Below, piece after piece: positions 3,300 through 43,964 of a stretch of DNA of 64,000 nt. The translations under genes were made by a program, and so were the position numbers. Location: the IMG/VR virus record IMGVR_UViG_3300032214_001563, positions 1 to 64,000 of that record; one strand, 5' to 3'. The first letter of the stretch is position 1, and each line of letters starts with the position of its first letter. The notes below the pieces were generated by a model. The model did not search any database and was not told where the DNA came from. It was given only the letters and a program-made list of their open reading frames with translations. Origin of the DNA: a virus.

Positions 3300-6200
3300 T
3301 TATAAAAGTTGCGCTTTACCAATAATCACATCACCAAACCTAGTTGTCCAGGATTGAATATTGGAATCAATGTTATTTTTATTACCTAAGTTTTGAATCA
3401 GTTGAACTTGTTCGCTTGGTGGTTGTAATAGCGTTTCGTAGGTAAACACTCTTTCTTTGTTGAGGTTGACTTGCGTGAAGTTCAAAAAGTTTCTCAAAGC
3501 ATTCGATGAAAAATCTGTTAAGAACGCATTTGTTGCAGCATTCTCAGACAAGTATGCTGGTCTTGCAACTCCCTTCCAGTAATTGTCAAACGTTGCTTCT
3601 ACTTGCTGGAAAGTAACATTTCCCAATACCCCAGCATTATCTCTCAAGTTTCCAATTAATGCGTTTTTGAAAGTATTGTAATTGTTCTCGTCCAACACTT
3701 TTTGGGACAATATGAAGTATTGACGGCGATTTGAATCTGTATCCCAAAAAATATCCGTATTTTTAGTAAATGGAATGAAAACTTGGTTCTTAATGAAAGT
3801 TTCATCACCAGGACTTGACGATAAAAATCCAGTGTAAGCACTTCCACTTATATTTGCGGTGTATCCACTTTGAATAATAGAATCAAACGATGTAAGAGCT
3901 GATACAATAATGTTTATGTCCGCCTCCAATTCTTGTAAAGTATTTGAAACTCCAACTGAAGAAGCAGAAACCGCACTTGTACCTGAGATATTAATAACAA
4001 CAACATTACCATCAGTTCTTTGATATCCATCAGTTCCTAGATTGGTATCAGTATCATAATAAGGCAATACATTGGCTCTTGAGAGAGTTTGAATGTATGA
4101 AGTTTGTGCATCAGTGATATTCTGCAGGATGGTTGTTGCTCCGTTTTGGAACGTACCACGATAATCGGTGATATAATCTTTGTAGTTATTTTTGATTATT
4201 CGAATTGTCTTGTTTGAGAAGAACCCAACTTGTTGATTTAGATATGTAATGTAACCCTCTGTGTCGTTATTTATATCACTTATAAATGCTGAGAATACGT
4301 CATTCACGTTCTTTTCGAATGATGATGGCTTACCAAACAATGGAACATTATCGGTTCCGGAAACAAACATGTTACCTTGAGTATATCTGCGGTTGAATGA
4401 AAACTGTTGTCTTACCGCGTTGTTGTACTGGAGGTTTAGGTCTCTTATCTTGTTGTTGATAGTTGTGAAATAATTTTGGGTTTCACCAACAAGGGTGGTC
4501 ATAAAATCTTTGTATTGAATAGTACCAATATCTCCATTTGCTGTGCTTGTAGTTGTTAATACACGACCAATAAACTCCAAATTGTTTTTGGGTTGTGTAT
4601 TAGACGCTTGATTGATTGTTGGTGGTGGTGTCTTTAAGTTGAGTTGGTTTATAAACTCTTGGTCTATTACTTTGTAGCTATCATCCGTGGCATCTGCTCG
4701 GTCGTCGTAGATTTCTGTATTGGCATAGTAATTAAATGACAGGGCATTTTGAAGCTTGTCAACAGACTCTTTCAAACCTTGTCCCCCAACAAATTGGAAA
4801 GAAAGAGTTACGTTTGCAATCATCGGTTGAACTCCAATTCCCTCAGGATTCAAGTCCAAATCTTCATATGTAAGGTTCAAACTTTCCGGAATAATTTTAG
4901 AATGGAAAAAATCTCCAACTCTTAAAATCAAAACAGGAGGTGCACCAAATGAAGTATTAACGGCATTATTGTATTGTAAAGTTGTACCACCTTGGTTATC
5001 TACTTTTACTGTTGGTATAGTGTCTCCAGGACGCATACATTGCTGTAAGAATGTAAGTCTTGAGTTTAATCCTTCTGGTGTAATTGAATGGAAAGCCGGA
5101 TGAAAGAATTTTAATTTTTCTCTTAAGCTATCATACACCATTGGTGTATCTTGTTTGATTACCTCGAAATAATCACATTCAGATAACAAGCTACGTAGAA
5201 CTCTTTTAGTAATGTTGTCTCTAAACACCGTCTCCTCAACAACTTCCGTTACGGGCTGTTTTGGTCTTCTTTGTTCTATAATTTGTTCGTCAAAGAATGG
5301 AATTTCTTCTGGAACATCGACATCTGTGGGTGGTGGTGAAGCCACATAATTGATGGATTGTATCACTGTACGACGACAAGCCATTGCATTAACAGTATAA
5401 ACTTGAGCATCTCTTGACAAACTATCTTGTCCAGTACAAGTATAAGAACCAAAAGTTCTTCCGTTTAAACCTATCGGATTAACTTGTGCATTTTCACCCA
5501 AAGTGTTTCCAGTATTTAAACTCAATCTGCCCGTGCTGATGTAAGTGCTCAAATTACCAATAGAAGAAATATACTGCACAGCAGAGTTCATTCTTCTCTG
5601 TGATAACAAGAAGTTATAGTCTTGTGTTTGTGGATTCGATGCGCTACTTTGTAGTACCATACCACATGTTGCATTCACATCATTTGCCAAATCTTTATCC
5701 AGTTGGATAAGCATTTGCTCAATCGAACTTTTGTTACCCTCAACGACTTGAGTAAAAAATTCATTAACTTGAGTTTGTTCACCCAAAGCACTCGACTTTA
5801 CACTATAAAATTGTTTATTGGTTGAACTGGTATAAGTTTGATAATAAACTTCGTAATTTTGAACGGGAATACTTGGTTTTGGAATGTCGTTTTCAAAATA
5901 AAGTCCGTAGTTATTCAACGCAGCATAATCAAACCCTGATGATTGACGTTGTTGACTATTTGCCGGTTGATAACCATTTCCATCTGAACCACCAGCCGTT
6001 GTTCCAAATCCTCCACTTTGAACAGTTCTTACATAGTATTCAACATCTTCTCCAGGAACATTTTTGGTTTGAAGTCTTTGTTGGATTTCAAATATGTCGT
6101 TTGGATTGACCGTGTAGTATTTTCTGGCAAGTTCATACAAATCGTACTTTCTACATCCAGCAAAGAATGAATCCAATATTTGGTCCGCTCTTTGTCTGAT

Positions 6201-8348
6201 ATTTGTGTCGTTAAGAACTCTGTTTACCAACATGTTCAAAACAGAAGGGTGGTCTACAACAATTTTCCAGGTTAAAGTACCTGAACGTGAGCTGTTGGAA
6301 TATGTAAACACTGGCTCTGGTCTACCGATGAAATCGGTCTGTTTAAAACTAGCTCTGGTGCTTTCATTGAATGTCAAACCATAAGGGGGGAACCACATAA
6401 CTCTACCACCATTTGGACCTCTTTCACACACTGGTAAATCAGCAACGGTAAGTCCCGGTCTATTCGAAGTTCTCCATGCAAGGTTTTCAAGTGAGAACAT
6501 ATACTTCTTGGCATAACCATTTGGTCCTCCAATCAAGTTAGTTGAATCTTGACCACCTTCCCTTTTATTAGGTGCGATGTTAAGGTTATATGTTTTGTCA
6601 AAGATTGAATAAGAAAATCTTCTTCCTTCAGTTGTAATACCATCAGTTTTCTGAAGGTCGTTGTATTGAAGGTAAGGAGTATCTTTCTGGAATATTCTAC
6701 AATACTCAACACCAACCTCAGCACCAATAGCACCAATATAACGTTGAACTTTTGAACCTTTGGTTATTTCTTTGTATCCATCATTGAATACTTTTGACAC
6801 CTGGTCAATGGCATTTCCAACATGTTGGAGTCTTCTTCCTCCCCTTGGTTGAGAATCGATGATTCTCTGGGTGTCGTCCATGATTGAACCTTGTCTAAAC
6901 TCAAACTCTGTTGACTCCGTTGGCTGATATGCTGAAGGTCTGAAGTCTGGGTCTTCAGCTATTGCATCTCCACCTAATCCGACAAATTTACCAGCGTTTC
7001 TTTTGAATTTTGGAGATACCCAAGTAAAACCACCAACAATGTCACCACCACTACTATATGTTGGCCCATTAGCCCCAAGATTTAGAGCTTGACCCGGTCC
7101 TTCGTATAGTTGCGCTAGCTCTTGTGGTCCATAAACAGGTGCTTGGATTTCTCTACCGAATTGGTCCACTGGTACGTCACCAGAGGGTGAGAATACCTGA
7201 CTTGGTTCCGACTTGACACTTCCGATGTAATATTCACCATTGTTTGTATTTCTACCTTGAAGTGCCCCCGCAACTCTATCAAAGATTGGTCTGTCGTAAC
7301 CTGGTTTGTATAGGTTGTAATCAATATTCTTGAAAAGTTGGGACCTTTGTCCACCACCGGTGTTTTCAAGAAATAATATTGAACCCCTAAGATTTGACTG
7401 CGAATTTAATCTTGCAAAAAATCTTCCCAATCCAGCAGCAGCATTAGCTCCAAGGAACGCAGCCGCTAATTGTTGTCCTGTTGTGGGAATCCCGCTGTTA
7501 ATCTGCGGGTCAAAGTAATTTCCAGGAATAACCGAAAATGGTGCGTAAGAGCCAGAGATTCTATTCAATAACCCAGCAGCTGCTCCAATAATCGTTGACC
7601 CTTCTGTAATTGTCCAGTTAGGTTCTAAAAGGGGAACCCTACCATTTATAAATGCAAGTATGTCTTCCCCCCCATTTACATTCAAGAAGTTTGCTCTCCC
7701 GAGGGTGTTTCTTCTTATCTCCCTACCGATGTTGTACTCAACTTGTTTTCTTAAACTTGCGGCACTGAGTTTTGCAAGGAACGAATCACTAGATAGCAAC
7801 CCATTAGAACCTGTTGGGTCGTTGCTTAGCATTATGCCAATCAACGGATAAGATGAAGAGTTAAAATTTGGATATGGCTGTGCGTTTGAGCTTCTTCCGT
7901 TGTTCTGAGTTAGTATCTCCAAAGACCCAAAGAATTCAGCAGAGTCAGTTAACTGGTCTGTGCTTGCATAAGCATTAAGTGGTTTCCACGCTGGAGCTAC
8001 ACCAGGAAATCCTACTTGAGCAGCAGAGAAACCTTCATCAATAATATTTGCATCCTGAAAGCCATATTCACCCTCGTTGCTTCTAGTGTTGTTCAGAGCA
8101 CCAACATACGGAACTTGTTTGTAACCACCATCAGCACCATATTGGTTTAAGGGGTATAAAAGATTGGCAAGAACTGGAGTATCGATTAAGGTGTCATCAG
8201 TATCAACTGGAGACAAATCCCTTTGTATAGTTTCGTAGTTATAGGGGGGGTTGGGAAGTTTTGGTGATTTCTTGTAAGCCAGTAAGTTTCTTGCCACAAG
8301 TTTTTTTCTAAAAACTTCGGAGCTAGGAAAATCTAGTGGGCTTGCCAT
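3300..8348 (-). CDS. Giant baseplate/tail structural protein with OmpA-like domain (1682 aa)
   Basis: This is the largest protein in the window and is Asn/Gln/Tyr-rich with no signal peptide or membrane helix. Residues about 880-1003 look like an OmpA C-terminal (peptidoglycan-binding) domain: 'YNFLLSQRRMNSAVQYI' matches the N..LS..R...V..Y signature, followed by a G/R strand and a C-terminal 'CRRTVIQSINYV' strand. The flanks are unrecognised. It sits between the tape measure and gp53-like genes, as expected for a baseplate component. The ATG at 8348 follows a TATTTATA element by about 10 bases. An exact T4 equivalent cannot be named; it may combine roles of several wedge proteins. The structural role is well supported by context, and the OmpA call rests on motif reading. 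Confidence 0.75.
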   Translation of the reverse strand: MASPLDFPSSEVFRKKLVARNLLAYKKSPKLPNPPYNYETIQRDLSPVDTDDTLIDTPVLANLLYPLNQYGADGGYKQVPYVGALNNTRSNEGEYGFQDANIIDEGFSAAQVGFPGVAPAWKPLNAYASTDQLTDSAEFFGSLEILTQNNGRSSNAQPYPNFNSSSYPLIGIMLSNDPTGSNGLLSSDSFLAKLSAASLRKQVEYNIGREIRRNTLGRANFLNVNGGEDILAFINGRVPLLEPNWTITEGSTIIGAAAGLLNRISGSYAPFSVIPGNYFDPQINSGIPTTGQQLAAAFLGANAAAGLGRFFARLNSQSNLRGSILFLENTGGGQRSQLFKNIDYNLYKPGYDRPIFDRVAGALQGRNTNNGEYYIGSVKSEPSQVFSPSGDVPVDQFGREIQAPVYGPQELAQLYEGPGQALNLGANGPTYSSGGDIVGGFTWVSPKFKRNAGKFVGLGGDAIAEDPDFRPSAYQPTESTEFEFRQGSIMDDTQRIIDSQPRGGRRLQHVGNAIDQVSKVFNDGYKEITKGSKVQRYIGAIGAEVGVEYCRIFQKDTPYLQYNDLQKTDGITTEGRRFSYSIFDKTYNLNIAPNKREGGQDSTNLIGGPNGYAKKYMFSLENLAWRTSNRPGLTVADLPVCERGPNGGRVMWFPPYGLTFNESTRASFKQTDFIGRPEPVFTYSNSSRSGTLTWKIVVDHPSVLNMLVNRVLNDTNIRQRADQILDSFFAGCRKYDLYELARKYYTVNPNDIFEIQQRLQTKNVPGEDVEYYVRTVQSGGFGTTAGGSDGNGYQPANSQQRQSSGFDYAALNNYGLYFENDIPKPSIPVQNYEVYYQTYTSSTNKQFYSVKSSALGEQTQVNEFFTQVVEGNKSSIEQMLIQLDKDLANDVNATCGMVLQSSASNPQTQDYNFLLSQRRMNSAVQYISSIGNLSTYISTGRLSLNTGNTLGENAQVNPIGLNGRTFGSYTCTGQDSLSRDAQVYTVNAMACRRTVIQSINYVASPPPTDVDVPEEIPFFDEQIIEQRRPKQPVTEVVEETVFRDNITKRVLRSLLSECDYFEVIKQDTPMVYDSLREKLKFFHPAFHSITPEGLNSRLTFLQQCMRPGDTIPTVKVDNQGGTTLQYNNAVNTSFGAPPVLILRVGDFFHSKIIPESLNLTYEDLDLNPEGIGVQPMIANVTLSFQFVGGQGLKESVDKLQNALSFNYYANTEIYDDRADATDDSYKVIDQEFINQLNLKTPPPTINQASNTQPKNNLEFIGRVLTTTSTANGDIGTIQYKDFMTTLVGETQNYFTTINNKIRDLNLQYNNAVRQQFSFNRRYTQGNMFVSGTDNVPLFGKPSSFEKNVNDVFSAFISDINNDTEGYITYLNQQVGFFSNKTIRIIKNNYKDYITDYRGTFQNGATTILQNITDAQTSYIQTLSRANVLPYYDTDTNLGTDGYQRTDGNVVVINISGTSAVSASSVGVSNTLQELEADINIIVSALTSFDSIIQSGYTANISGSAYTGFLSSSPGDETFIKNQVFIPFTKNTDIFWDTDSNRRQYFILSQKVLDENNYNTFKNALIGNLRDNAGVLGNVTFQQVEATFDNYWKGVARPAYLSENAATNAFLTDFSSNALRNFLNFTQVNLNKERVFTYETLLQPPSEQVQLIQNLGNKNNIDSNIQSWTTRFGDVIIGKAQLL

Positions 8349-8378: not shown

Positions 8379-10106
8379 TTATTTTTTCAACTCTCTTATA
8401 GCAGCATCGGTTCTTGCTTTAACTATCTGATATATGTTGTCCTTCACTTCTGGGTTGTTGAATATAGAGAATATTTGCTGGTCTGTTAGGTTATTTGGAG
8501 TATCTACTTTGATATTAATATCCCCCATTACTTCAACTTGACCGGTGACAGTTGCTTCGCCTGTTTGTCTTTGTTGTCTGGAGTAGGTTTCCCAGCTCTT
8601 GTATCTTTCATCTTGACCTTCTCCAATACCTACTTGACGAAATCTTTCTCTTCCAGCTTCCATATTTTGGAATGAACTCACAACATTTTGAAGTCTTGAG
8701 GCAACACCAAGTTCTACCGTACCCTCTTCAACGCTTCTTTTCAAAGCATCTTGAAGGTCCTCAATACTACCCTTTCCCTTAATTAAGTTTTCTGCGGCAC
8801 CTTTAAGCACATCACCAGTTTTTTCAAAAGCTTCTCTAAACTCCTTGGTGGTAGGAATAGCTTCTGGTCCATATGCTTCCGAAGCAAAGTTATCAAACCC
8901 TTCTCTGAGACTTTCTATTCCTCTTGTTAGACCGGTTTGACCAGCAATAGCATAACCCAATCGCAAAGGAAGTGCTGCAATGTCTCTTGCTATCAATTGG
9001 TCAGTGTCAAGCTGTGCTCGAGCAATTTCCTCCATAGTCTGAGGTCTCAGAGCCGCTTGTTGCTTGATTTGTTGAAATTGAGCATCAGTTAACTTATCAA
9101 GAGCTTGGGTTTGCATTTTACCTTGTTCATCTTGGAATTCAACAAAGAACCTGTTACCCTCACCCATTTTGGCCATGTTTGCCACCAACATCTTATCCTC
9201 TTCACTTCCTTGAACATCGAAAGATATTTGACTTAATCTTCTATCCAAATCTGCAGCTGCAAGTGCAGTCTTTGTCATGTTTTCATAACTCAATCCAGTT
9301 TGCTCCTGTAGTTCTTTCAGCAGACGAACTCCTCCCGGATTAATTCTGAAGTTTCCAGTCTTTTCGTCAAAGATTGTAAATTGCTTAGCCAACTCAATAA
9401 TTGAGTCCTGCAGACCCTCTGGGTCGTTGATTGACTTATCCATTAAAATAAATGGGTCAACTAAATCCCCAGAGGCAACACCTAGACGTTGAAATGCAGA
9501 TGCCATTTGGATTGCACCTTCTGGGTTCAAAACCTTATCAGCAAACTCAGCTGTCTGGGTCATGTCGAACCTTAACATTGAAGCTTGGGCTGCCATTTTA
9601 GAAAGTCCAAGAACCCCCCCTTCGAAGTTAAAACGGTTCATGTACTCCATACGGGAAGCTACATCACCCATTATAGTTCTGGCATTCAAACCAATAGATT
9701 GAATATAATCAACAGAATCCTCTGTTGCTTCGGCAATATTGGACATTTCAATACCAGCTATTGCAAAACTTTCCGTAATTTCACCGGCAGTTTTGCCCAA
9801 GTATTGAGCGGTAGCAAATATTTCGGTAAGTGTCTCCCTTGTTGCAACTACGTTTCTCCTGGAGGCTTCACCAATACCTGCGATAGTTGCACTAACGTCA
9901 GTTGCTTGCCCACCTAAACGTACAAAATCCGCTACGCTATCAGAAACAGCGGTAGAAAATTCTAAATACCTAGTTCGAGTTTCACCGAACGAACGGTTGA
10001 TATCACTGATACCATCTTGAATTCTGCCAATATTCCCAAGTAGGTCTGCAGACTCACCGATAAGTTTTTTGAACATTTCGGCACCGCCAATATTCTCTTC
10101 CGCCAT
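8379..10106 (-). CDS. Putative tail tape measure protein
   Basis: This 575-residue protein is predicted to be almost wholly alpha-helical, with Ala/Gln/Glu-rich heptad-like stretches (residues about 1-60, 80-130 and 330-480) and no enzyme motif. That is typical of tape measure proteins, which set tail length and sit inside the tube. The gene lies immediately after the gp26-like gene and its out-of-frame extension and before the baseplate genes, the usual tape-measure position behind the chaperone pair. T4 gp29 is 590 residues long, so the predicted tail length would be close to that of T4. No sequence similarity to gp29 can be claimed by eye. The ATG at 10106 is preceded by CTATTTATAT. Confidence 0.6.
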   Translation of the reverse strand: MAEENIGGAEMFKKLIGESADLLGNIGRIQDGISDINRSFGETRTRYLEFSTAVSDSVADFVRLGGQATDVSATIAGIGEASRRNVVATRETLTEIFATAQYLGKTAGEITESFAIAGIEMSNIAEATEDSVDYIQSIGLNARTIMGDVASRMEYMNRFNFEGGVLGLSKMAAQASMLRFDMTQTAEFADKVLNPEGAIQMASAFQRLGVASGDLVDPFILMDKSINDPEGLQDSIIELAKQFTIFDEKTGNFRINPGGVRLLKELQEQTGLSYENMTKTALAAADLDRRLSQISFDVQGSEEDKMLVANMAKMGEGNRFFVEFQDEQGKMQTQALDKLTDAQFQQIKQQAALRPQTMEEIARAQLDTDQLIARDIAALPLRLGYAIAGQTGLTRGIESLREGFDNFASEAYGPEAIPTTKEFREAFEKTGDVLKGAAENLIKGKGSIEDLQDALKRSVEEGTVELGVASRLQNVVSSFQNMEAGRERFRQVGIGEGQDERYKSWETYSRQQRQTGEATVTGQVEVMGDINIKVDTPNNLTDQQIFSIFNNPEVKDNIYQIVKARTDAAIRELKK

Positions 10107-10136: not shown

Positions 10137-10301
10137 TTAGTTTTTCTCATTCTCTCGAACCCACTTGTCCAACATATATTTTCGGACAAAGATTGGCATA
10201 CTCATAAAATCTGAATATGAAAGGTGGAAAAGTTTGGACAGATAGTAGAATTCATCTATCTGACCTTGTCGGTAATCAGAAGAAAGGACGAAAAAAGTCA
10301 A
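10137..10301 (-). CDS. Out-of-frame C-terminal extension of the gp26-like gene (candidate frameshift product)
   Basis: A frame shifted by +1 (equivalently -2) from the end of the gp26-like gene is open from 10316 to a TAA at 10137 and overlaps the last residues of that gene. It has no ATG before the internal 'FMSMP' region; the first plausible start is TTG at 10301. The encoded stretch (with 'FYYLSKLFHLSYSDFM', 'MPIFVRKYMLDKWVRE') looks like genuine protein. Its aromatic-basic composition is typical of the second half of tail assembly chaperones. The position between tube and tape measure fits the G/GT layout of lambda. It is probably made as a fusion by slippage at the T6 run at 10291-10296, adding 50 residues to the first 243. 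An independent TTG-initiated protein is the alternative. Confidence 0.55.
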   Translation of the reverse strand: MTFFVLSSDYRQGQIDEFYYLSKLFHLSYSDFMSMPIFVRKYMLDKWVRENEKN

Positions 10302-11019
10302 CCCCGAAGCCGATGTTCACAGACAGCTTTTCTCCTGACGGGGCAATAATAACCCGATTCATATCCAATCGAGGCTCGTTTTCATTCATGAATTTTTTTA
10401 TCTGTTTCGAATCGGCAAGTGGCATTGCTTCGATAAACTTGTGAATTTCACCTTTGTCAGTCAAACCATTAACAGAAACAATTTCTTTTTGCAATCTCCA
10501 TGTTCTCACAGGAGCAATTCTTCCTTGTGGATACGTTTCGGTCATGTTTGAAATTTCTGTTGTTTCTCCAAACGTAAGTGGTTTTAGTTTCACATTTGCT
10601 CCTGAGTTCTCCAAGTTGATACTAAAAGTTCCATCCGCATCCGGTTCGATACCTTTCTTTATGTTAAGCTCATCTAGACGCTCTGTTGCTGTGAATTTCT
10701 TTCCTGATTTGGGGTCAGTCAAATTTAGCTCAATTGTTGGTCCGAATGCTGTGTTTCTCAAGAAAACAAGAATAGCTTCAATATCCCCTTCGAGAAGTTC
10801 TTCTGGTTTAAGCCCTGGTTCGTAGATTTTCGCTCGGAGAAGATTCAAGGTCATGTCTTTACCACCAGCCATGAGAATATTTTCATCACTTGCTGTAAGG
10901 TATCCTACCTTAAGTGAATTCTTTTTATTCTTATAAAAAACTCCTTGAGAAGGGAGTGGGACAACATCGTGAGGCAGTGAAAACTGCTGTTGAGAATAAT
11001 TTAAAGTATCTTGGTCCAT
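10276..11019 (-). CDS. gp26-like baseplate hub / tail assembly chaperone protein
   Basis: This 247-residue protein matches the T4 gp26 family pattern: an N-terminal 'VPLPSQGVFY' motif (residues about 19-28), then 'TASDENILM', an 'EELLEGDIEAILVFLR' helix and an 'FG..IE..L' strand. In T4 gp26 is described as a hub subunit. Here the gene lies between the tube and tape measure, exactly where tail assembly chaperones sit in other phages, and its 3' end carries a T6 run with an overlapping open frame. The terminator after the tube gene sits just upstream of its ATG, so transcription must restart or read through. The hub-family call is good; the chaperone role is inference. Confidence 0.65.
   Translation of the reverse strand: MDQDTLNYSQQQFSLPHDVVPLPSQGVFYKNKKNSLKVGYLTASDENILMAGGKDMTLNLLRAKIYEPGLKPEELLEGDIEAILVFLRNTAFGPTIELNLTDPKSGKKFTATERLDELNIKKGIEPDADGTFSINLENSGANVKLKPLTFGETTEISNMTETYPQGRIAPVRTWRLQKEIVSVNGLTDKGEIHKFIEAMPLADSKQIKKFMNENEPRLDMNRVIIAPSGEKLSVNIGFGVDFFRPFF
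10291..10296 (-). promoter_or_regulatory. Candidate programmed frameshift site (T6 run)
   Basis: On the minus strand GAC TTT TTT CGT forms codons 241-244 of the gp26-like gene, four codons before its stop. A Phe-tRNA on the second TTT can slip +1 onto TTC, or -2 onto TTT, with full pairing. Either slip enters the 50-codon downstream frame that ends at 10137. A -1 slip instead meets TAG after eleven codons. Confidence 0.45.
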
Positions 11020-11087: not shown

Positions 11088-11576
11088 TTAGTAAATCAAT
11101 ACACAACGGTCCATTCTCAATGTTGTTGAAATGGTTGCAAGACCATCTTGAGAATAGTTAAGAGTGTTGAAGTTAACGTCGGTTAGGAATGTTCCGTAAA
11201 GAATCCACTTTTCCACAACAACACCTGTTGGGTCAAGCATTTCCAAATCGATATCTTTTTTGTAACCAGCAGCGTATCCCATACGTCCAGTCACTGATTC
11301 AGCGTGAAGACGAACCCACTCCATCAAAGCTTGTGCTGCTGAAGGACCAATGGGGTCACGGAATGTTACTGGAATAGTCTGCCAGTTAAATCTACCCGCT
11401 ACGAACGTTGAAGTATTCAAAAACTGAATTTCAGTAGGGTTGATGGTAATGTGTGGTCTTGCAGTAGATTCTACAAACCATTCGTTAATACCTAAAGATG
11501 AAGGAAACCTTAGAATGAACCTGTTTTGTCTTTTTGGTTCATAAGGAATCGGCATTTTCATTAATAAATCCGCCAT
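11088..11576 (-). CDS. 19: Tail tube protein gp19-like
   Basis: At 162 residues it is the same size as T4 gp19 (163). It has the family layout: 'KRQNRFILRFPSSLG' near the N-terminus, a 'STARPHI' strand, 'WQTIPVTFRDPIGPSAAQAL' (residues about 66-85), and a C-terminal beta segment ending in 'STTLRMDRCVLIY'. It forms the hexameric rings of the inner tube through which DNA passes. A TATTTATA element lies about 35 bases upstream of the ATG at 11576 and a strong terminator follows the gene, so it appears to be its own transcription unit. It is one of the most secure calls in the window. Confidence 0.92.
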   Translation of the reverse strand: MADLLMKMPIPYEPKRQNRFILRFPSSLGINEWFVESTARPHITINPTEIQFLNTSTFVAGRFNWQTIPVTFRDPIGPSAAQALMEWVRLHAESVTGRMGYAAGYKKDIDLEMLDPTGVVVEKWILYGTFLTDVNFNTLNYSQDGLATISTTLRMDRCVLIY

Positions 11577-12614: not shown

Positions 12615-15600
12615 TTAAATATTTTCGAAAGATGCTCCAGTAGGAGTAATCAAGAATTCGATATCTATAAATTCAAGTGCCTTTGTTGGTTTCAGATAGA
12701 TTTTACCAGTCAAAGTATTTCTATCCAAGTCCTCAGGAGTCGAAGAAACGGTTACGCGGAAGTCGTACAAACCACGGTCTCTTCTGATTGAATCCAAGAT
12801 TGGGTTAACCGAATCCAAGAATTGCTGTCTTACGATTTCATCATTTTGTTCGAACAGAAGTCTTACAGCAACAGCAGAAATCAACTTTCTAGCCTGAAGC
12901 AACAATCTTCTTACGTTCAAACGATTTAACGCTGTGTCTCTAACTTGAAGAGTTTTGTTACCCCAAATTACAGTGCCCACGTCTGAGAAGGTAGCAATCG
13001 GGTTGATACGCCCTTGGTAAAGAGTATCTCTATCCTCTTGTGTTAGTTTTAATCTCGCTTTAACAGAATTAACAAGACCTCTTGTGTAACCCGCAGATGC
13101 GAACCATGGGAAAGAAATGTTGTCAGTCAACGCTAAATTTCTACAAACTTGACCAGTTGGCGGAATGTAGATTTGAGTATTATTGACGGTGTCTCTTTCA
13201 AGTATCCATGGGTAGTAAGTTGCCGTATACGATGAGTCAATTCCAGTTTGGTCTAGATTATCCACCGCAGCTTGAGGGTAAATAATTTCGTACTGAGAAG
13301 TACCATCAGGAGTATACATGTTGTAGTCAGGTGTAGTTACGATGTAGACCGCATCTGCTCTCTCATTCTCCACCATTCCGATTGCTAACTCACACAAGTT
13401 AGAGTTGTTTACATAGTCAATACCAGGGGTTGCAAACACGTTAATGTTTGTCGATTCTGGATTATTGAATGTCAATTGACCTAACAAGTATGCGTAATAG
13501 TCAGTGTTTGCGAAATCTTGAGTGTTATCACCAATGACAATTCTCTTAAAAGTACCATCACCAGATGCTGTTGGGTATCTTTGAGTTGGTGTAGAACCTT
13601 GCAAGTAACCAGAAGCACCTAAAGCAAATCTGTCTTGGTTAGTTCTAAACTCTCTGTAGATGTCCCATCCGTCGAAACCACCCTGGAATACACAGGTGAA
13701 TTTTCTAGAGTAAATAAAGTAGTAAGGACTTTCTTGCGAAGTAGGTTCAGAATCAAAACTTGCAACACCGCAATCAAATGCTGGAGTTCCACTAGTTACT
13801 TGTGAATTAGCAATAGTAACAACTGTTGCTCCAGAGTCCATGTGGAAACCTTTAGTTTGGTAGTTCCAAGGCTCTGAAGTTGTTGCCAAATCCCAACCAG
13901 TAACCGGATTCTTTTTCCCTTTGTATTGAAGTAAGTCAGTATCAATTCCAAATTGCGAAGAAATACCCAAGTAAGTTCTTCTTACAATGTCACCAGATGA
14001 AGTAACAATATTTGCACCACCAGCAGTAGTTCCAAAAGGTGGGTCATAAATTGTTTCACCAGGGAAGAAGTACTTGGTTTTGATAATAGGGAATGGAGAC
14101 GGGTTAGTTGCTGTCTCGTAAATTCTCTCTTCAAGACCATAGAATCCACATGGTAAAGCGTCAACAGGATATTCATCCGACATTTCCACCATTATGTATG
14201 CAGAATTTAAAGGATACTCCCCATCAACAGAGCCAATTTGCTTTCCAATAAAGCTGTTTTGGGATGGGTCCATTGTACAGTTAGTGTATTTTTCATAAAC
14301 AACTGGGTTAGCATCGGTATCGAAGAAATCACGAACCAATACATCAAATGTTCCATTGTTGAAAGAAATGTTTGCGATTGAAATCTTAACATCTGTGTTA
14401 GCAGAATTACCATCACTGATAGTCATAAATCTGAACAAGTTGTAAACTTTGTTACCACGAAGTTCAGATACAAAGTAAGGTGTTTTTGGTGTTTGGTACT
14501 GGTCAAGGAACCATGCAATAGAGGTGGTTGAAGCTTTATCACGAGCTTCAGGAAGTGCAATCAAATCGCACTTAACACCACGAATATATCCTTTGTTGTA
14601 ACCATAGTTCAACATACCCAAGTAAGATTCCTCAACGTAAATTGGAACTTCTTGTCTTGGTTTAGAGAAGTTAGCAATTCCAAGAACTTTTGTAATATAG
14701 TTTGCATTTGTTGAATCAAATGATGTATCAAAAGAGAAAGTATTACCTTCGTAGGTTACACCACTTAGCTGGAATGTTGCAAATGGGCTTTGTGAAATTC
14801 CAGAGTATGCTCCTGTACAAACCAAATCCAAATCAGTTAAACCAGTAACTTGATACTGAGGACCATGTAAATTAGAACTATAAACTGATATACCGCGTGA
14901 ACGAATTGTTGCGAGAATCAAATTATTCCATTCGGTATATGCAGTACCAGAGTATATGTAAGTTTCACCTGTAATTGTTCCAGAGAAAAATCCAGAAGCC
15001 CCCGTTACAAAGTTGGTTACATCATAATACCAAGAATATCCAGAGTAACTATTGTTGTTTGTAACGTCGAATGTTGCATAATACCAAGGGTCGTTTGTTC
15101 CAGAAGACAAATCAGCAGAATCAAGACTCAAATTATTGCAACCAAAAATGTTACCAAGATTGGAGAACTGAGCACTCAACGTTGTGTAATCTGAAGTTGG
15201 AATAGAACCGTAGACATTTGCTGTTGAAGCAGAAAGAGTGGTGTTACCTGAAATATCCAACATGAACCCGAATAAGTCTGCATTGTAAGTTGAGGTTGAA
15301 CCATCCGTCAATGTATATTGTGTTGACAATGAGTTTGAAACAAGCGCAGGTAAACCACTAGCAAAAGTAAGAGTTGTACCTGAGGTATATCCAGTAAAGT
15401 TAACTGTGAATGTGGTTCCAGCTGTGCCAGTGTCAATACCAACTGTGGTACCATTTACGTTAGCAATAGCCTGTAAACTCCAAGAAGGTCCTGCGTCGTA
15501 TCCTGATAAACCAAGGATACGAGTAACAAACAATTGATTTGATTGTTGCAAGTAGGCTTTGGCTATGTAAGCTGCTTCGTACTTTGGAATTTGTGTGTTT

Positions 15601-15821
15601 ATGAATTTTGTTGGTATAGTACCACCAAAGAAAGTTTGGAACTCATCAAAGTTAGTGATGAAGATAGGTTCGAAGGCAGGCCCCTTTTGAGTTTCACCCA
15701 CCAAACCCAAAGTAGTGACACCAACACTTTGAGCAACAAAAGATAAGTCAGTTTCTGATGTGTAAACCCCTGGGGACACAAAAACTTTTTGGTTTGCTTG
15801 AGATGTTAATTGAAAAAACAT
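12615..15821 (-). CDS. 18: Contractile tail sheath protein gp18-like (1068 aa)
   Basis: The N-terminus has the sheath signature 'SPGVYTSETDLSF' followed by 'GLVGETQKGPAFEPIFI' and 'EFQTFFGG'. The C-terminus has the conserved handshake region with 'RRDRGLYDFRV' and 'GKIYLKPTKALEFIDIEF'. These regions form the core that wraps the tube and contracts on injection. At 1068 residues it is much longer than T4 gp18 (659). The extra length is mainly a Ser/Thr/Gly/Tyr-rich beta region at about residues 120-480, probably surface domains on each subunit. The gene has its own upstream TATTTAT element and a strong terminator. The family call is secure; the role of the insertion is unknown. Confidence 0.93.
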   Translation of the reverse strand: MFFQLTSQANQKVFVSPGVYTSETDLSFVAQSVGVTTLGLVGETQKGPAFEPIFITNFDEFQTFFGGTIPTKFINTQIPKYEAAYIAKAYLQQSNQLFVTRILGLSGYDAGPSWSLQAIANVNGTTVGIDTGTAGTTFTVNFTGYTSGTTLTFASGLPALVSNSLSTQYTLTDGSTSTYNADLFGFMLDISGNTTLSASTANVYGSIPTSDYTTLSAQFSNLGNIFGCNNLSLDSADLSSGTNDPWYYATFDVTNNNSYSGYSWYYDVTNFVTGASGFFSGTITGETYIYSGTAYTEWNNLILATIRSRGISVYSSNLHGPQYQVTGLTDLDLVCTGAYSGISQSPFATFQLSGVTYEGNTFSFDTSFDSTNANYITKVLGIANFSKPRQEVPIYVEESYLGMLNYGYNKGYIRGVKCDLIALPEARDKASTTSIAWFLDQYQTPKTPYFVSELRGNKVYNLFRFMTISDGNSANTDVKISIANISFNNGTFDVLVRDFFDTDANPVVYEKYTNCTMDPSQNSFIGKQIGSVDGEYPLNSAYIMVEMSDEYPVDALPCGFYGLEERIYETATNPSPFPIIKTKYFFPGETIYDPPFGTTAGGANIVTSSGDIVRRTYLGISSQFGIDTDLLQYKGKKNPVTGWDLATTSEPWNYQTKGFHMDSGATVVTIANSQVTSGTPAFDCGVASFDSEPTSQESPYYFIYSRKFTCVFQGGFDGWDIYREFRTNQDRFALGASGYLQGSTPTQRYPTASGDGTFKRIVIGDNTQDFANTDYYAYLLGQLTFNNPESTNINVFATPGIDYVNNSNLCELAIGMVENERADAVYIVTTPDYNMYTPDGTSQYEIIYPQAAVDNLDQTGIDSSYTATYYPWILERDTVNNTQIYIPPTGQVCRNLALTDNISFPWFASAGYTRGLVNSVKARLKLTQEDRDTLYQGRINPIATFSDVGTVIWGNKTLQVRDTALNRLNVRRLLLQARKLISAVAVRLLFEQNDEIVRQQFLDSVNPILDSIRRDRGLYDFRVTVSSTPEDLDRNTLTGKIYLKPTKALEFIDIEFLITPTGASFENI

Positions 15822-41943: not shown

Positions 41944-42333
41944 ATGAGTAAAAATGTAAGTCCAGTATTGCCAGATGGGACAAAAAATTATTTGATTGAT
42001 ATTGATGGTACTATAACAGATGATGTTCCAAACGAAGAACCGGAAAGAATGAAAACTTGCCTACCTTTTGAAGGTTCAGTTGAAATTATTAATACATGGT
42101 TCGAAGAAGGGCACATTATTACTTTCTTTACTTCCCGAACTGAAGAACATCGTGATATTACTGAAACTTGGTTCAGAACTCATGGTTTTAAATACCACAA
42201 TTTATTGATGAATAAACCACGTGGTGGAAACTACCATTGGATAGACAATCATATCGTGAGAGCCACACGTTACAACGGGAAGTGGTCACCAATGATAAAA
42301 AAAATAACTACAATTGAAGTATTTGAAGAATGA
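41944..42333 (+). CDS. Small HAD-family phosphatase
   Basis: This 129-residue protein starts at the ATG at 41944, directly after the dUTPase stop. Motif I is 'YLIDIDGTITDD' (residues about 15-26) and motif II 'ITFFTSRTEEHRDITETWF' (about 64-82). A late 'WIDNH' could supply the metal acid. Similar short HAD enzymes appear in capsule clusters and in phages, acting on sugar phosphates or nucleic acid ends. A sugar-phosphate role is attractive because a split HldE lies in the same cassette, which needs a bisphosphatase step, but nothing in the sequence proves it. It overlaps the following glycosyltransferase gene by 4 bases. Confidence 0.65.
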   Translation: MSKNVSPVLPDGTKNYLIDIDGTITDDVPNEEPERMKTCLPFEGSVEIINTWFEEGHIITFFTSRTEEHRDITETWFRTHGFKYHNLLMNKPRGGNYHWIDNHIVRATRYNGKWSPMIKKITTIEVFEE

Positions 42334-43964
42334 TAACAATAGCTTTTTCAACAAAATCAGACAAACCAGAACTTATTGAACACTTTAAAAAATCCTCAGG
42401 ATATGAAAAAGGTGTTAGAGTAATTCAAAAAATAAACAACGGAGAAAAATCTCTTTCTCAGGTTTACAATGAAATTCTGAATGAAACTCCCGATGACATC
42501 GTAATTTTTACGCATGATGATATCTATTTTGACACCTCAGCTTGGTATTCGAAAATTGTAAGAAATTTTGAAAAATATAACTATGGTATCATTGGATTAG
42601 CAGGAACACCCAGTCTCCCTTCATCTGGAATGTGGTGGGAAGACCGTAGAAAAATGTGTGGTATTGTAAATCATGAAAATCAAGGAAAAAAATGGGAATC
42701 AAAGTATTCACCCAGTTTCGGGAACGAACTCAGAGAAGTTTGTTTGGTCGATGGTGTTTTTATTGCGGTGCACAAACAACGAATTAAAAAAAACTTTGTC
42801 GAGGATTTTCAAGGGTTTCACTTTTATGATATCCCTTTCTGTGTCGAAAACTACCTGCAAGGTGTTAAAATAGGTGTTTGTACAAACATAAGAATAACCC
42901 ATAAATCAATTGGGCAAACAAATCAACAATGGGAAGATAATAGAATCCTGTTTACTCAAAAGTATGCTGAGCATCTGCCAATTAAAGTACCGTTTGACCC
43001 AGAAAAAAAACTAAAAGTTTTAATTTCATCCATGTTTTTTCGGACTTTTACTGGTTCAGAGGTTTACGTCTACGAACTCGCTAAGTCTCTGCAAAAGCAG
43101 AATTGTGAAGTAACCGTGCTGTCACAAATAGGTGGACCATTAACGGATTTAGCAAGAAAAAATGGAATTAAATGTTATTCTTTTGAGGAGTCTCCTGGAT
43201 TCAAAATGGGTGATGGAAAATGGTTGATAATGACTCCGGAAGGCAAACCACAACCCTCAAATCCAAATACTCTATACAAAACTGCTGAAGTAGATTTTGA
43301 CATCATTCATATCCAACATAAACCAGTTGCGGAACGAATGATAAATCTTTACCCAGACATTGAAAAAATCGCAACAATTCACTCAGAAGTTATTGAACTA
43401 GAAGACCCTATCATTCACAATTCTATTAAACATTACATAGCGATTAGACCCGAAATTAAAGACCATATTGTTAATAACTTTGGTATTCCACAAGAAAAAG
43501 TTTCATTAATTTATAATCCAGTAGATAAAGAAAAGTTTCCAACCCTAAAAGAAAAAAGTGATGGTTACATTTTGTTTGTTGGAACAGTAGATTACCTAAG
43601 GCAATTAGCGATTAAAGATGCTGCAGAATATGCAATTTCTTTAGGTAAAGAACTGTGGTTAGTTGGTGAAGATAAATCAATTTATCTTAAAAGTTATCTT
43701 GAAAACTCAAATATAAAACACTTCCCACCCACATGGAATCTTAAACCTTTTATCGAAGGTGCTTATGAAACTGCAGGAATCCAATTAGGTCGAACAACTA
43801 TTGAAAGTTGGATGAGCGGAAAAAATAGTTGGATTTATAAAGTTAATCAAGATGGTGATATTCTCTCCAAAGAAAAAACTTCACCACCAGATGACATAGA
43901 AAAATTCTATTCCGAAAATGTTGCAAAACAAATTAAAGAAGAATATCTAAAAATTTTATCATGA
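42330..43964 (+). CDS. Bifunctional glycosyltransferase (GT2-like plus GT4-like)
   Basis: Residues about 1-225 form a GT-A unit: 'SLSQVYNEILNETPDDIVIF' then 'THDDIYFDTSAWYSKIV' with H-D-D as the metal site, and 'GVFIAVHKQRIKKNF'. Residues about 228-544 form a GT-B unit: 'LKVLISSMFFRTFTGSEVYVYEL' (within the acceptor domain), 'IHIQHKPVAERMINLYPDIE', then 'DGYILFVGTVDYLRQLAIKD' and 'GRTTIESWMSGK' in the donor domain. It may therefore add two sugars in sequence. It overlaps both neighbours by 4 bases (ATGA). The order of fusions resembles processive glycan-building enzymes in O-antigen clusters. Confidence 0.75.
   Translation: MITIAFSTKSDKPELIEHFKKSSGYEKGVRVIQKINNGEKSLSQVYNEILNETPDDIVIFTHDDIYFDTSAWYSKIVRNFEKYNYGIIGLAGTPSLPSSGMWWEDRRKMCGIVNHENQGKKWESKYSPSFGNELREVCLVDGVFIAVHKQRIKKNFVEDFQGFHFYDIPFCVENYLQGVKIGVCTNIRITHKSIGQTNQQWEDNRILFTQKYAEHLPIKVPFDPEKKLKVLISSMFFRTFTGSEVYVYELAKSLQKQNCEVTVLSQIGGPLTDLARKNGIKCYSFEESPGFKMGDGKWLIMTPEGKPQPSNPNTLYKTAEVDFDIIHIQHKPVAERMINLYPDIEKIATIHSEVIELEDPIIHNSIKHYIAIRPEIKDHIVNNFGIPQEKVSLIYNPVDKEKFPTLKEKSDGYILFVGTVDYLRQLAIKDAAEYAISLGKELWLVGEDKSIYLKSYLENSNIKHFPPTWNLKPFIEGAYETAGIQLGRTTIESWMSGKNSWIYKVNQDGDILSKEKTSPPDDIEKFYSENVAKQIKEEYLKILS

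What the first reader, a model, noticed from the sequence alone, without database searches (positions are those of the whole stretch)
10137..11019. Candidate +1/-2 programmed frameshift joining the gp26-like protein to a 50-residue extension
The gp26-like gene ends four codons after GAC TTT TTT CGT. The +1 frame continues for 50 codons of protein-like sequence with no ATG at its head, directly before the tape measure. This is the lambda G/GT and Mu-type layout. It would recast T4-like gp26 proteins as tail assembly chaperones. A fused product would be 293 residues.
Basis: partly seen in the sequence, partly recalled or inferred. Interest (0 to 1): 0.72.

Follow-up and report, generated by a model that had tools for sequence, protein, structure and literature searches.

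The report
+1 frameshifted phage tail assembly chaperone
This virus of bacteria appears to make two versions of its tail-building helper protein from one gene, by having a few ribosomes slip one base forward near the end; phage T4 uses two separate genes for the same pair, and the slip site is conserved in hundreds of related phage sequences.

Summary
The gp26-like gene (247 codons, 11019..10276) ends TTT TTT CGT CCT TTC TTC TGA. The +1 frame stays open for 50 more codons and stops 30 nt before a tape-measure gene; the fused product is 293 aa. All 62 close relatives that contain the junction (54-100% identity) keep TTTTTTCG. The extension evolves as protein in the +1 frame (pN/pS 0.34, the same as the gene). 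Synonymous change collapses at the site (p=5e-5). No start codon for the extension is conserved. In wider relatives, 180 of 184 intact junctions have the same +1 layout at UUU_UGG, CUU_UGG or UUU_CGN, matching known +1-prone sites. The -2 route and transcript slippage are disfavoured. Six complete +1 genomes each carry one gp26/51-family gene; three Straboviridae, T4 included, carry two (short gp26, long gp51). Through cyanophage intermediates (75/75 in the -1 frame) the extension is homologous to the C-terminal tail of gp51. This is therefore a gpG/gpGT-type tail assembly chaperone pair made by +1 frameshifting. That T4 gp26/gp51 are such chaperones is already published (2022), so the new part is the +1 version, its site and its breadth. 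No protein-level proof yet.

The parts
10276..11019 (-). Short form: gp26-like / PF12322 protein, 247 aa, the TAC-N (gpG-like) product made by normal termination
   Evidence: PF12322 33.9 bits, above the cutoff of 24.5; phrog_150 baseplate hub E=9e-11; AF2 pLDDT 85, Foldseek match to SP-15 hub subunit E=1e-16
10302..10305 (-). GGGG, SD-like stretch 5 nt upstream of the T run; the GGG codon is fixed in 18 of 18 representatives. Stimulator role inferred only
   Evidence: Gly is GGT or GGA elsewhere in the gene (48 GGG of 300, 18 of them at this site); this stretch lies outside the dual-coding overlap
10290..10296 (-). Shift site TTT TTT C (UUU_CGU): tRNA-Phe slips +1 from UUU to UUC before the infrequent CGU codon
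   Evidence: Fixed in 62/62 loci; wider family UUU_UGG / CUU_UGG; UUU_Y is +1-prone in bacteria (PMC5009743)
10276..10289 (-). Overlap read in both frames after the shift (CGN CCT TTC TTC TGA / GNC CTT TCT TCT GAN)
   Evidence: Synonymous conservation here is the highest in the gene; +1 peptide L(S/T)(S/P)(D/E)Y is kept in distant phages whose 0-frame tails differ
10137..10289 (-). +1-frame extension (T-like, TAC-C domain), 50 codons plus TAA; predicted compact three-helix domain
   Evidence: pN/pS 0.336; homologous to +1 extensions of distant phages E=2.5e-9; AF2 pLDDT 89; linked to the gp51 C-terminus through cyanophage extensions
10137..11019 (-). Long form: 293-aa fusion, the TAC-NC (gpGT-like / gp51-like) product of +1 frameshifting
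   Evidence: conserved layout
8379..10106 (-). Tape measure protein, 575 aa, starts 30 nt after the extension stop
   Evidence: hhalign against the tape-measure family of Flavobacterium phage immuto E=1e-14, 98%
11088..11576 (-). Tail tube protein, upstream neighbour
   Evidence: phrog_4542 tail tube E=5e-25
12615..15821 (-). Tail sheath protein, context
   Evidence: tblastn to annotated tail sheaths

Best explanation
The gene is the single tail assembly chaperone gene of a T4-related contractile-tailed phage. Most ribosomes stop at TGA and make a 247-aa short form (gp26-like, equivalent to lambda gpG). A minority slip +1 at UUU_CGU, where tRNA-Phe moves from UUU to UUC while an infrequent Arg codon waits in the A site, and make a 293-aa long form (gp51-like, equivalent to gpGT) with a 50-aa three-helix C-terminal domain. 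By analogy with lambda, the common N-terminal part coats the tape measure encoded next door and the rare C-terminal domain recruits tail-tube subunits; both leave the finished tail. T4 and other Straboviridae encode the same two forms as two paralogous genes, 26 and 51. Supported by sequence comparison: both frames are under protein-level selection, the site is conserved, no start is conserved, and the gene is single-copy in complete relatives. Inferred: the shift in vivo, its efficiency, the exact slip codon, the GGGG stimulator, and the chaperone role.
For: TTTTTTCG plus the open +1 frame in 62/62 relatives. +1-frame purifying selection and synonymous-site collapse at the junction. Five of 32 unique family sequences have a +1-frame TAG 2 nt before the T run, so the frame can only be entered within about 20 nt. 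180 of 184 intact wider-family junctions share the +1 layout, with 124 unique sites dominated by TTT TTT TGG CCT (80), TTT CTT TGG CCT (23) and TTC TTT TGG CCT (8). Two relatives whose second domain has its own ATG (L248, L254) have lost the slippery run. Complete +1 genomes (immuto, Mel-JY01, RM378, SP-15, GXN1, LR756508) have one phrog_150-family gene; T4, Aes508 and EC-F2 have two. The extension is linked to the gp51 C-terminus: window extension to distant +1 extensions E=2.5e-9, those to cyanophage extensions E=4e-6, and these to gp51 E=2.4e-10, with gp26 control 0.62. Known chemistry: UUU_Ynn in bacteria, RF2 CUU_U, influenza UCC_UUU_CGU (PMC5009743). The downstream gene is a tape measure.
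Against: No peptide, ribosome-profiling or reporter data. No conserved 3' RNA structure (mean z about -1, differing folds). TTT TTT CGG also occurs mid-gene in another window ORF (42330..43964), so the motif alone cannot set the efficiency. The direct match of the window extension to the T4 gp51 tail is weak (hhalign 3.5%, p=0.012); homology rests on intermediates. Foldseek hits of the 52-aa extension are not significant (E>0.6), and no PDB structure matches the N-terminal part. The host is unknown, so its tRNA pool is unknown. G000 is a 70-kb fragment, so a second copy elsewhere in this particular phage cannot be excluded.
Confidence: 0.88

Rival explanations
1. The extension is a separate small protein translated from its own start (TTG at 10301-10299 here), by coupled initiation at the end of the gp26-like gene.
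For: Public annotations of related phages call pieces of it separate hypothetical ORFs (immuto26A_233, SP15_046, WWT39326), and a cyanophage record calls it gp51. A few relatives (L073, L248, L254) really do have an ATG just after the stop. About half of the close relatives have a chance ATG 20 nt upstream.
Against: The TTG is absent in many relatives; in L012, L014, L046, L048 and L063 a TAG lies 2 nt before the T run and no ATG/GTG/TTG occurs for at least 55 nt. The upstream ATG is confined to some subgroups. Codons FFVLSS upstream of any possible start in those sequences are under +1-frame constraint.
Confidence: 0.04
2. Frameshift of -2 at the T run, giving a product one Phe longer.
For: A P-site tRNA-Phe could re-pair at -2 within T6; -2 shifts are reported for Mu-type phages (own knowledge).
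Against: In relatives with the same layout the site is TTC TTT or TTT CTT (33 of 124 unique junctions), where a -2 slip has no good pairing but +1 (TTT to TTT, CTT to TTT) does.
Confidence: 0.03
3. RNA polymerase slippage on the T run makes a mixed mRNA pool, some read into the extension.
For: Homopolymeric runs can slip during transcription.
Against: The run is only six T, and relatives with the same layout have no run longer than 3-4 T (TTTCTTTGG, TTCTTTTGG).
Confidence: 0.02
4. Ordinary gene end followed by non-functional or decayed sequence; the open frame is chance or a sequencing error split one gene.
For: A single 54-codon open stretch is not rare in AT-rich DNA.
Against: Same junction in 62 contigs at 54-100% identity; both the 0-frame stop and the +1 frame are conserved; pN/pS 0.34.
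Confidence: 0.01

Closest known systems
T4 gp26 / gp51 (PF12322, phrog_150; tail assembly chaperones, Vladimirov et al. 2022)
   Same: Same protein family; short form without and long form with a roughly 45-50 aa C-terminal domain; near the tape measure
   Different: T4 uses two paralogous genes and no frameshift; here one gene and a +1 shift
Lambda gpG / gpGT and the dsDNA-phage G-T frameshift family (Xu et al. 2004)
   Same: Layout: short ORF, overlapping extension without its own start, then the tape measure; short and long forms from one gene
   Different: Lambda shifts -1; no sequence relation to lambda G/T was seen or specifically tested; ratio not measured here
Cyanophage gp26 + 'gp51' (e.g. 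S-RIM50)
   Same: Same family; single copy; extension overlapping the 3' end at a TTTTTTC; extensions homologous (E=4e-6)
   Different: The extension is in the -1 frame at U_UUU_UUC, 75/75 loci in the -1 frame
Influenza A PA-X and bacterial RF2 (prfB) +1 sites
   Same: UUU_CGU in PA-X is the same slip codon plus Arg codon; CUU_U in RF2 equals the immuto-type variant; RF2 also has an upstream SD-like G run (own knowledge)
   Different: Unrelated proteins; no stop codon in the A site here; the G run is spaced further from the slip codon than in RF2
Archaeal myovirus HSTV-2 tail chaperone
   Same: Tail assembly chaperone described as very likely using +1 frameshifting (PMC5009743)
   Different: Archaeal virus; relation to PF12322 not tested

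Membership tests
T4 gp26/gp51 family (PF12322 / phrog_150) | Profile match above curated cutoff | tested here: met
   PF12322 33.9 bits against 24.5; phrog_150 E=9e-11; fold match to T4-like hub assembly proteins
T4 gp26/gp51 family (PF12322 / phrog_150) | Long form carries the gp51-type C-terminal domain | tested here: met
   Through profile intermediates E=2.5e-9, 4e-6, 2.4e-10; the direct comparison alone is inconclusive (p=0.002-0.012)
T4 gp26/gp51 family (PF12322 / phrog_150) | Two separate paralogous genes, as in Straboviridae | tested here: not met
   One copy in G000 (fragment) and in six complete +1 relatives; two in T4, Aes508, EC-F2
G/GT tail assembly chaperones | Two overlapping ORFs directly upstream of the tape measure, second without conserved start | tested here: met
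G/GT tail assembly chaperones | Conserved slippery site in the overlap | tested here: met
   TTTTTTCG 62/62; wider family UUU_UGG etc.
G/GT tail assembly chaperones | Both forms made, at a fixed ratio | not testable with these tools
   Needs reporter or mass spectrometry
G/GT tail assembly chaperones | Binds tape measure and tube protein; absent from the virion | not testable with these tools
   Inferred by analogy
+1 programmed frameshift of UUU_Y type | P-site codon can re-pair in the +1 frame | tested here: met
   UUU to UUC here; UUU to UUU or CUU to UUU in relatives; CTA variants (4 of 124) are exceptions
+1 programmed frameshift of UUU_Y type | Slow or rare 0-frame A-site codon | tested here: inconclusive
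   CGN always used at the site although AGA dominates (291 of 500 Arg codons in the window ORFs counted); CGC 0.8 and CGT 6.9 per 1000; host tRNA unknown
+1 programmed frameshift of UUU_Y type | Stimulatory SD-like element or 3' structure | tested here: inconclusive
   GGGG fixed in the window family but GGGG in only 33 of 119 wider junctions; no conserved 3' structure

The most novel reading that the evidence does not exclude
A +1 programmed frameshift at UUU_Y / CUU_U is the standard way a very large group of T4-related phages makes the gp26/gp51 chaperone pair. At the same two-codon position, different lineages have switched between +1 slipping, -1 slipping (cyanophages, probably XacN1), separate initiation and gene duplication (T4), making this a natural evolutionary series of interchangeable ways to set one protein ratio.
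Probability: 0.6. Interest if true: 0.72.

Novelty: new variant of a known kind. Interest (0 to 1): 0.6.

Why it matters
It closes the apparent T4 exception to the G/GT rule from the other side: the family T4 belongs to does use frameshifting widely, and T4 uses a duplicated gene in its place. It also offers hundreds of natural, conserved +1 shift sites in phages of bacteria, where few +1 sites beyond RF2 are known, including one with the same UUU_CGU as influenza PA-X. And it shows that public genomes mis-annotate the chaperone C-terminal domain as a small hypothetical protein.

Tried and rejected
Pfam and PHROG scans of the extension gave only weak hits (tail assembly chaperone phrog_32580 E=0.023, hub assembly catalyst phrog_634 E=0.051). 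PDB sequence and fold searches found nothing. Conserved 3' RNA structure was looked for and not found. A -2 shift, transcript slippage, independent start and chance were considered and rejected (see rivals). Vladimirov et al. 2022 is not held, so how far it already reports frameshifting in other T4-like phages could not be read; one citing paper (PMC12846349) says it reports poly-T -1 signals.

Full report
OBSERVATION. All genes concerned lie on the minus strand. The gp26-like ORF runs 11019..10276 (247 aa) and ends GGG GTT GAC TTT TTT CGT CCT TTC TTC TGA. The +1 frame, TTT TTC GTC CTT TCT TCT GAT TAC ..., stays open to 10137. The 575-aa ORF that starts 30 nt later matches the annotated tape measures of Flavobacterium phage immuto and relatives (hhalign E=1e-14).

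IDENTITY. The 247-aa protein belongs to PF12322 (T4_baseplate, above the curated cutoff) and phrog_150. Its model (pLDDT 85) matches SP-15 and T4-like hub assembly proteins in the viral fold library. T4 gp26 and T4 gp51 are both members of that family, and gp51 is the longer: gp26 and the window product both end near profile position 235, while gp51 runs to 281.

CONSERVATION IN THE FAMILY. Sixty-two loci at 54-100% identity contain the junction. All have TTTTTTCG followed within 18 nt by the 0-frame stop, and all have the +1 frame open for 50-57 codons. Among 18 representatives below 95% identity the extension has pN/pS 0.336 in the +1 frame, equal to the gene (0.344), against 0.85 and 1.29 with about four stops in the other frames. 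The last eight informative codons are the most synonymously conserved of the gene (0.82 against a mean of 0.52, p=5e-5). GGG, TTT, TTT, CCT and TTC are fixed, and Arg is always CGN although AGA is the usual Arg codon.

NO INDEPENDENT START. Over 32 unique family sequences no ATG, GTG or TTG is conserved in the +1 frame ahead of the extension. In five sequences a TAG sits 2 nt before the T run and no usual start codon follows for at least 55 nt. In those the frame can only be entered inside TTTTTTCGNCCTTTCTTC. Because the +1 peptide (V/A/G)L(S/T)(S/P)(D/E)Y is shared with distant phages whose 0-frame tails are different (PFF, PTE, PK, PDAGV), the shift most likely happens before CCT, that is on the Phe codons.

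WIDER FAMILY. Of 189 loci, 5 are truncated before the junction. Of the remaining 184, 180 have the +1 layout, counting three that the automatic rule mis-scored (L197, L226, L234) and three cut by the contig end (L137, L173, L256). The exceptions are L073, L248 and L254, where the second domain has its own ATG (in L248 and L254 the slippery run is degraded), and L072 (XacN1), whose extension is in the -1 frame after seven T. Unique sites: TTT TTT TGG CCT 80, TTT CTT TGG CCT 23, TTC TTT TGG CCT 8, others 13. These all fit +1 re-pairing of the second codon, apart from four CTA variants. TTC TTT and TTT CTT do not fit -2, and the lack of a T run in them argues against transcript slippage. The +1 extensions of the two families are homologous (hhalign E=2.5e-9).

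COPY NUMBER AND THE LINK TO gp51. Complete genomes with the +1 layout hold one phrog_150-family gene (immuto, Mel-JY01, RM378, SP-15, GXN1, LR756508; SP-15 has one further match of E=0.03 to a 92-aa frame, taken as chance); T4, Aes508 and EC-F2 hold two. The window's own record is a 70-kb fragment with one copy. The direct profile match of the window extension to the gp51 C-terminus is weak but in register (p=0.012; gp26 control 0.17). Cyanophages supply the bridge: S-RIM50 has one gp26 and a following ORF annotated gp51, and in 75/75 relatives the extension is in the -1 frame, at T TTT TTC in every junction printed. Those extensions match gp51's C-terminus (E=2.4e-10) and the +1 extensions (E=4e-6), with the gp26 control at 0.62. 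The extension therefore corresponds to the gp51 tail, the short form to gp26, and T4 encodes separately what this phage appears to make by slipping.

MECHANISM. Atkins et al. 2016 (PMC5009743; [quoted passage not shown] The window site UUU_CGU fits this class. CGU is infrequent (6.9 per 1000 against AGA 21.9; CGC, used in some relatives, 0.8). GGGG upstream is SD-like and fixed in the window family but present in only 33 of 119 wider junctions, so its role is uncertain; no conserved 3' structure was found. The extension is predicted as a compact three-helix domain (pLDDT 89). Its fold hits include annotated tail assembly chaperones, but none is significant. The chaperone role itself is inferred from family, layout and lambda.

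WHAT IS KNOWN. T4 gp26 and gp51 are called hub assembly chaperones in PMC3004832. Vladimirov et al. 2022 identified the tail assembly chaperones of T4-like phages; according to PMC10885494, some T4-like phages carry a short gene plus a longer fused gene instead of frameshifting. PMC12846349 credits the same paper with poly-T -1 signals in T4-like phages, which would fit the cyanophage -1 sites seen here. I could not read that paper. I therefore file this as a new variant of a known kind: the +1 mode, its site and its breadth.

Noticed in passing
L269-L348 (relatives of cyanophage S-RIM50 gp26, L268:1765-2475): In 75 of 75 loci the gp51-like extension lies in the -1 frame, with T TTT TTC before the stop in every printed junction, a probable classical -1 site at the same position as the +1 site here.
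   Followed up: yes
L072 (Xanthomonas phage XacN1) 4700-4998: gp26-like gene with the extension in the -1 frame after seven T, suggesting -1 frameshifting in this jumbo phage; only one family gene in 385 kb.
   Followed up: partly
L073, L248, L254: Relatives in which the second domain has its own ATG just after the gp26-like stop; in L248 and L254 the slippery run is degraded, a natural control for the shift site.
   Followed up: partly
L075 3848-3958, L077 3812-3931, L071 4740-4976: Public records annotate fragments of the extension as separate hypothetical proteins (immuto26A_233, SP15_046, WWT39326).
   Followed up: no
window 42330-43964 (+), codons 236-238: Another in-frame TTT TTT CGG mid-gene; a possible background slip site, useful as an internal comparison.
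   Followed up: no
window 3300-8348 (-): 1682-aa protein directly downstream of the tape measure; function not examined.
   Followed up: no
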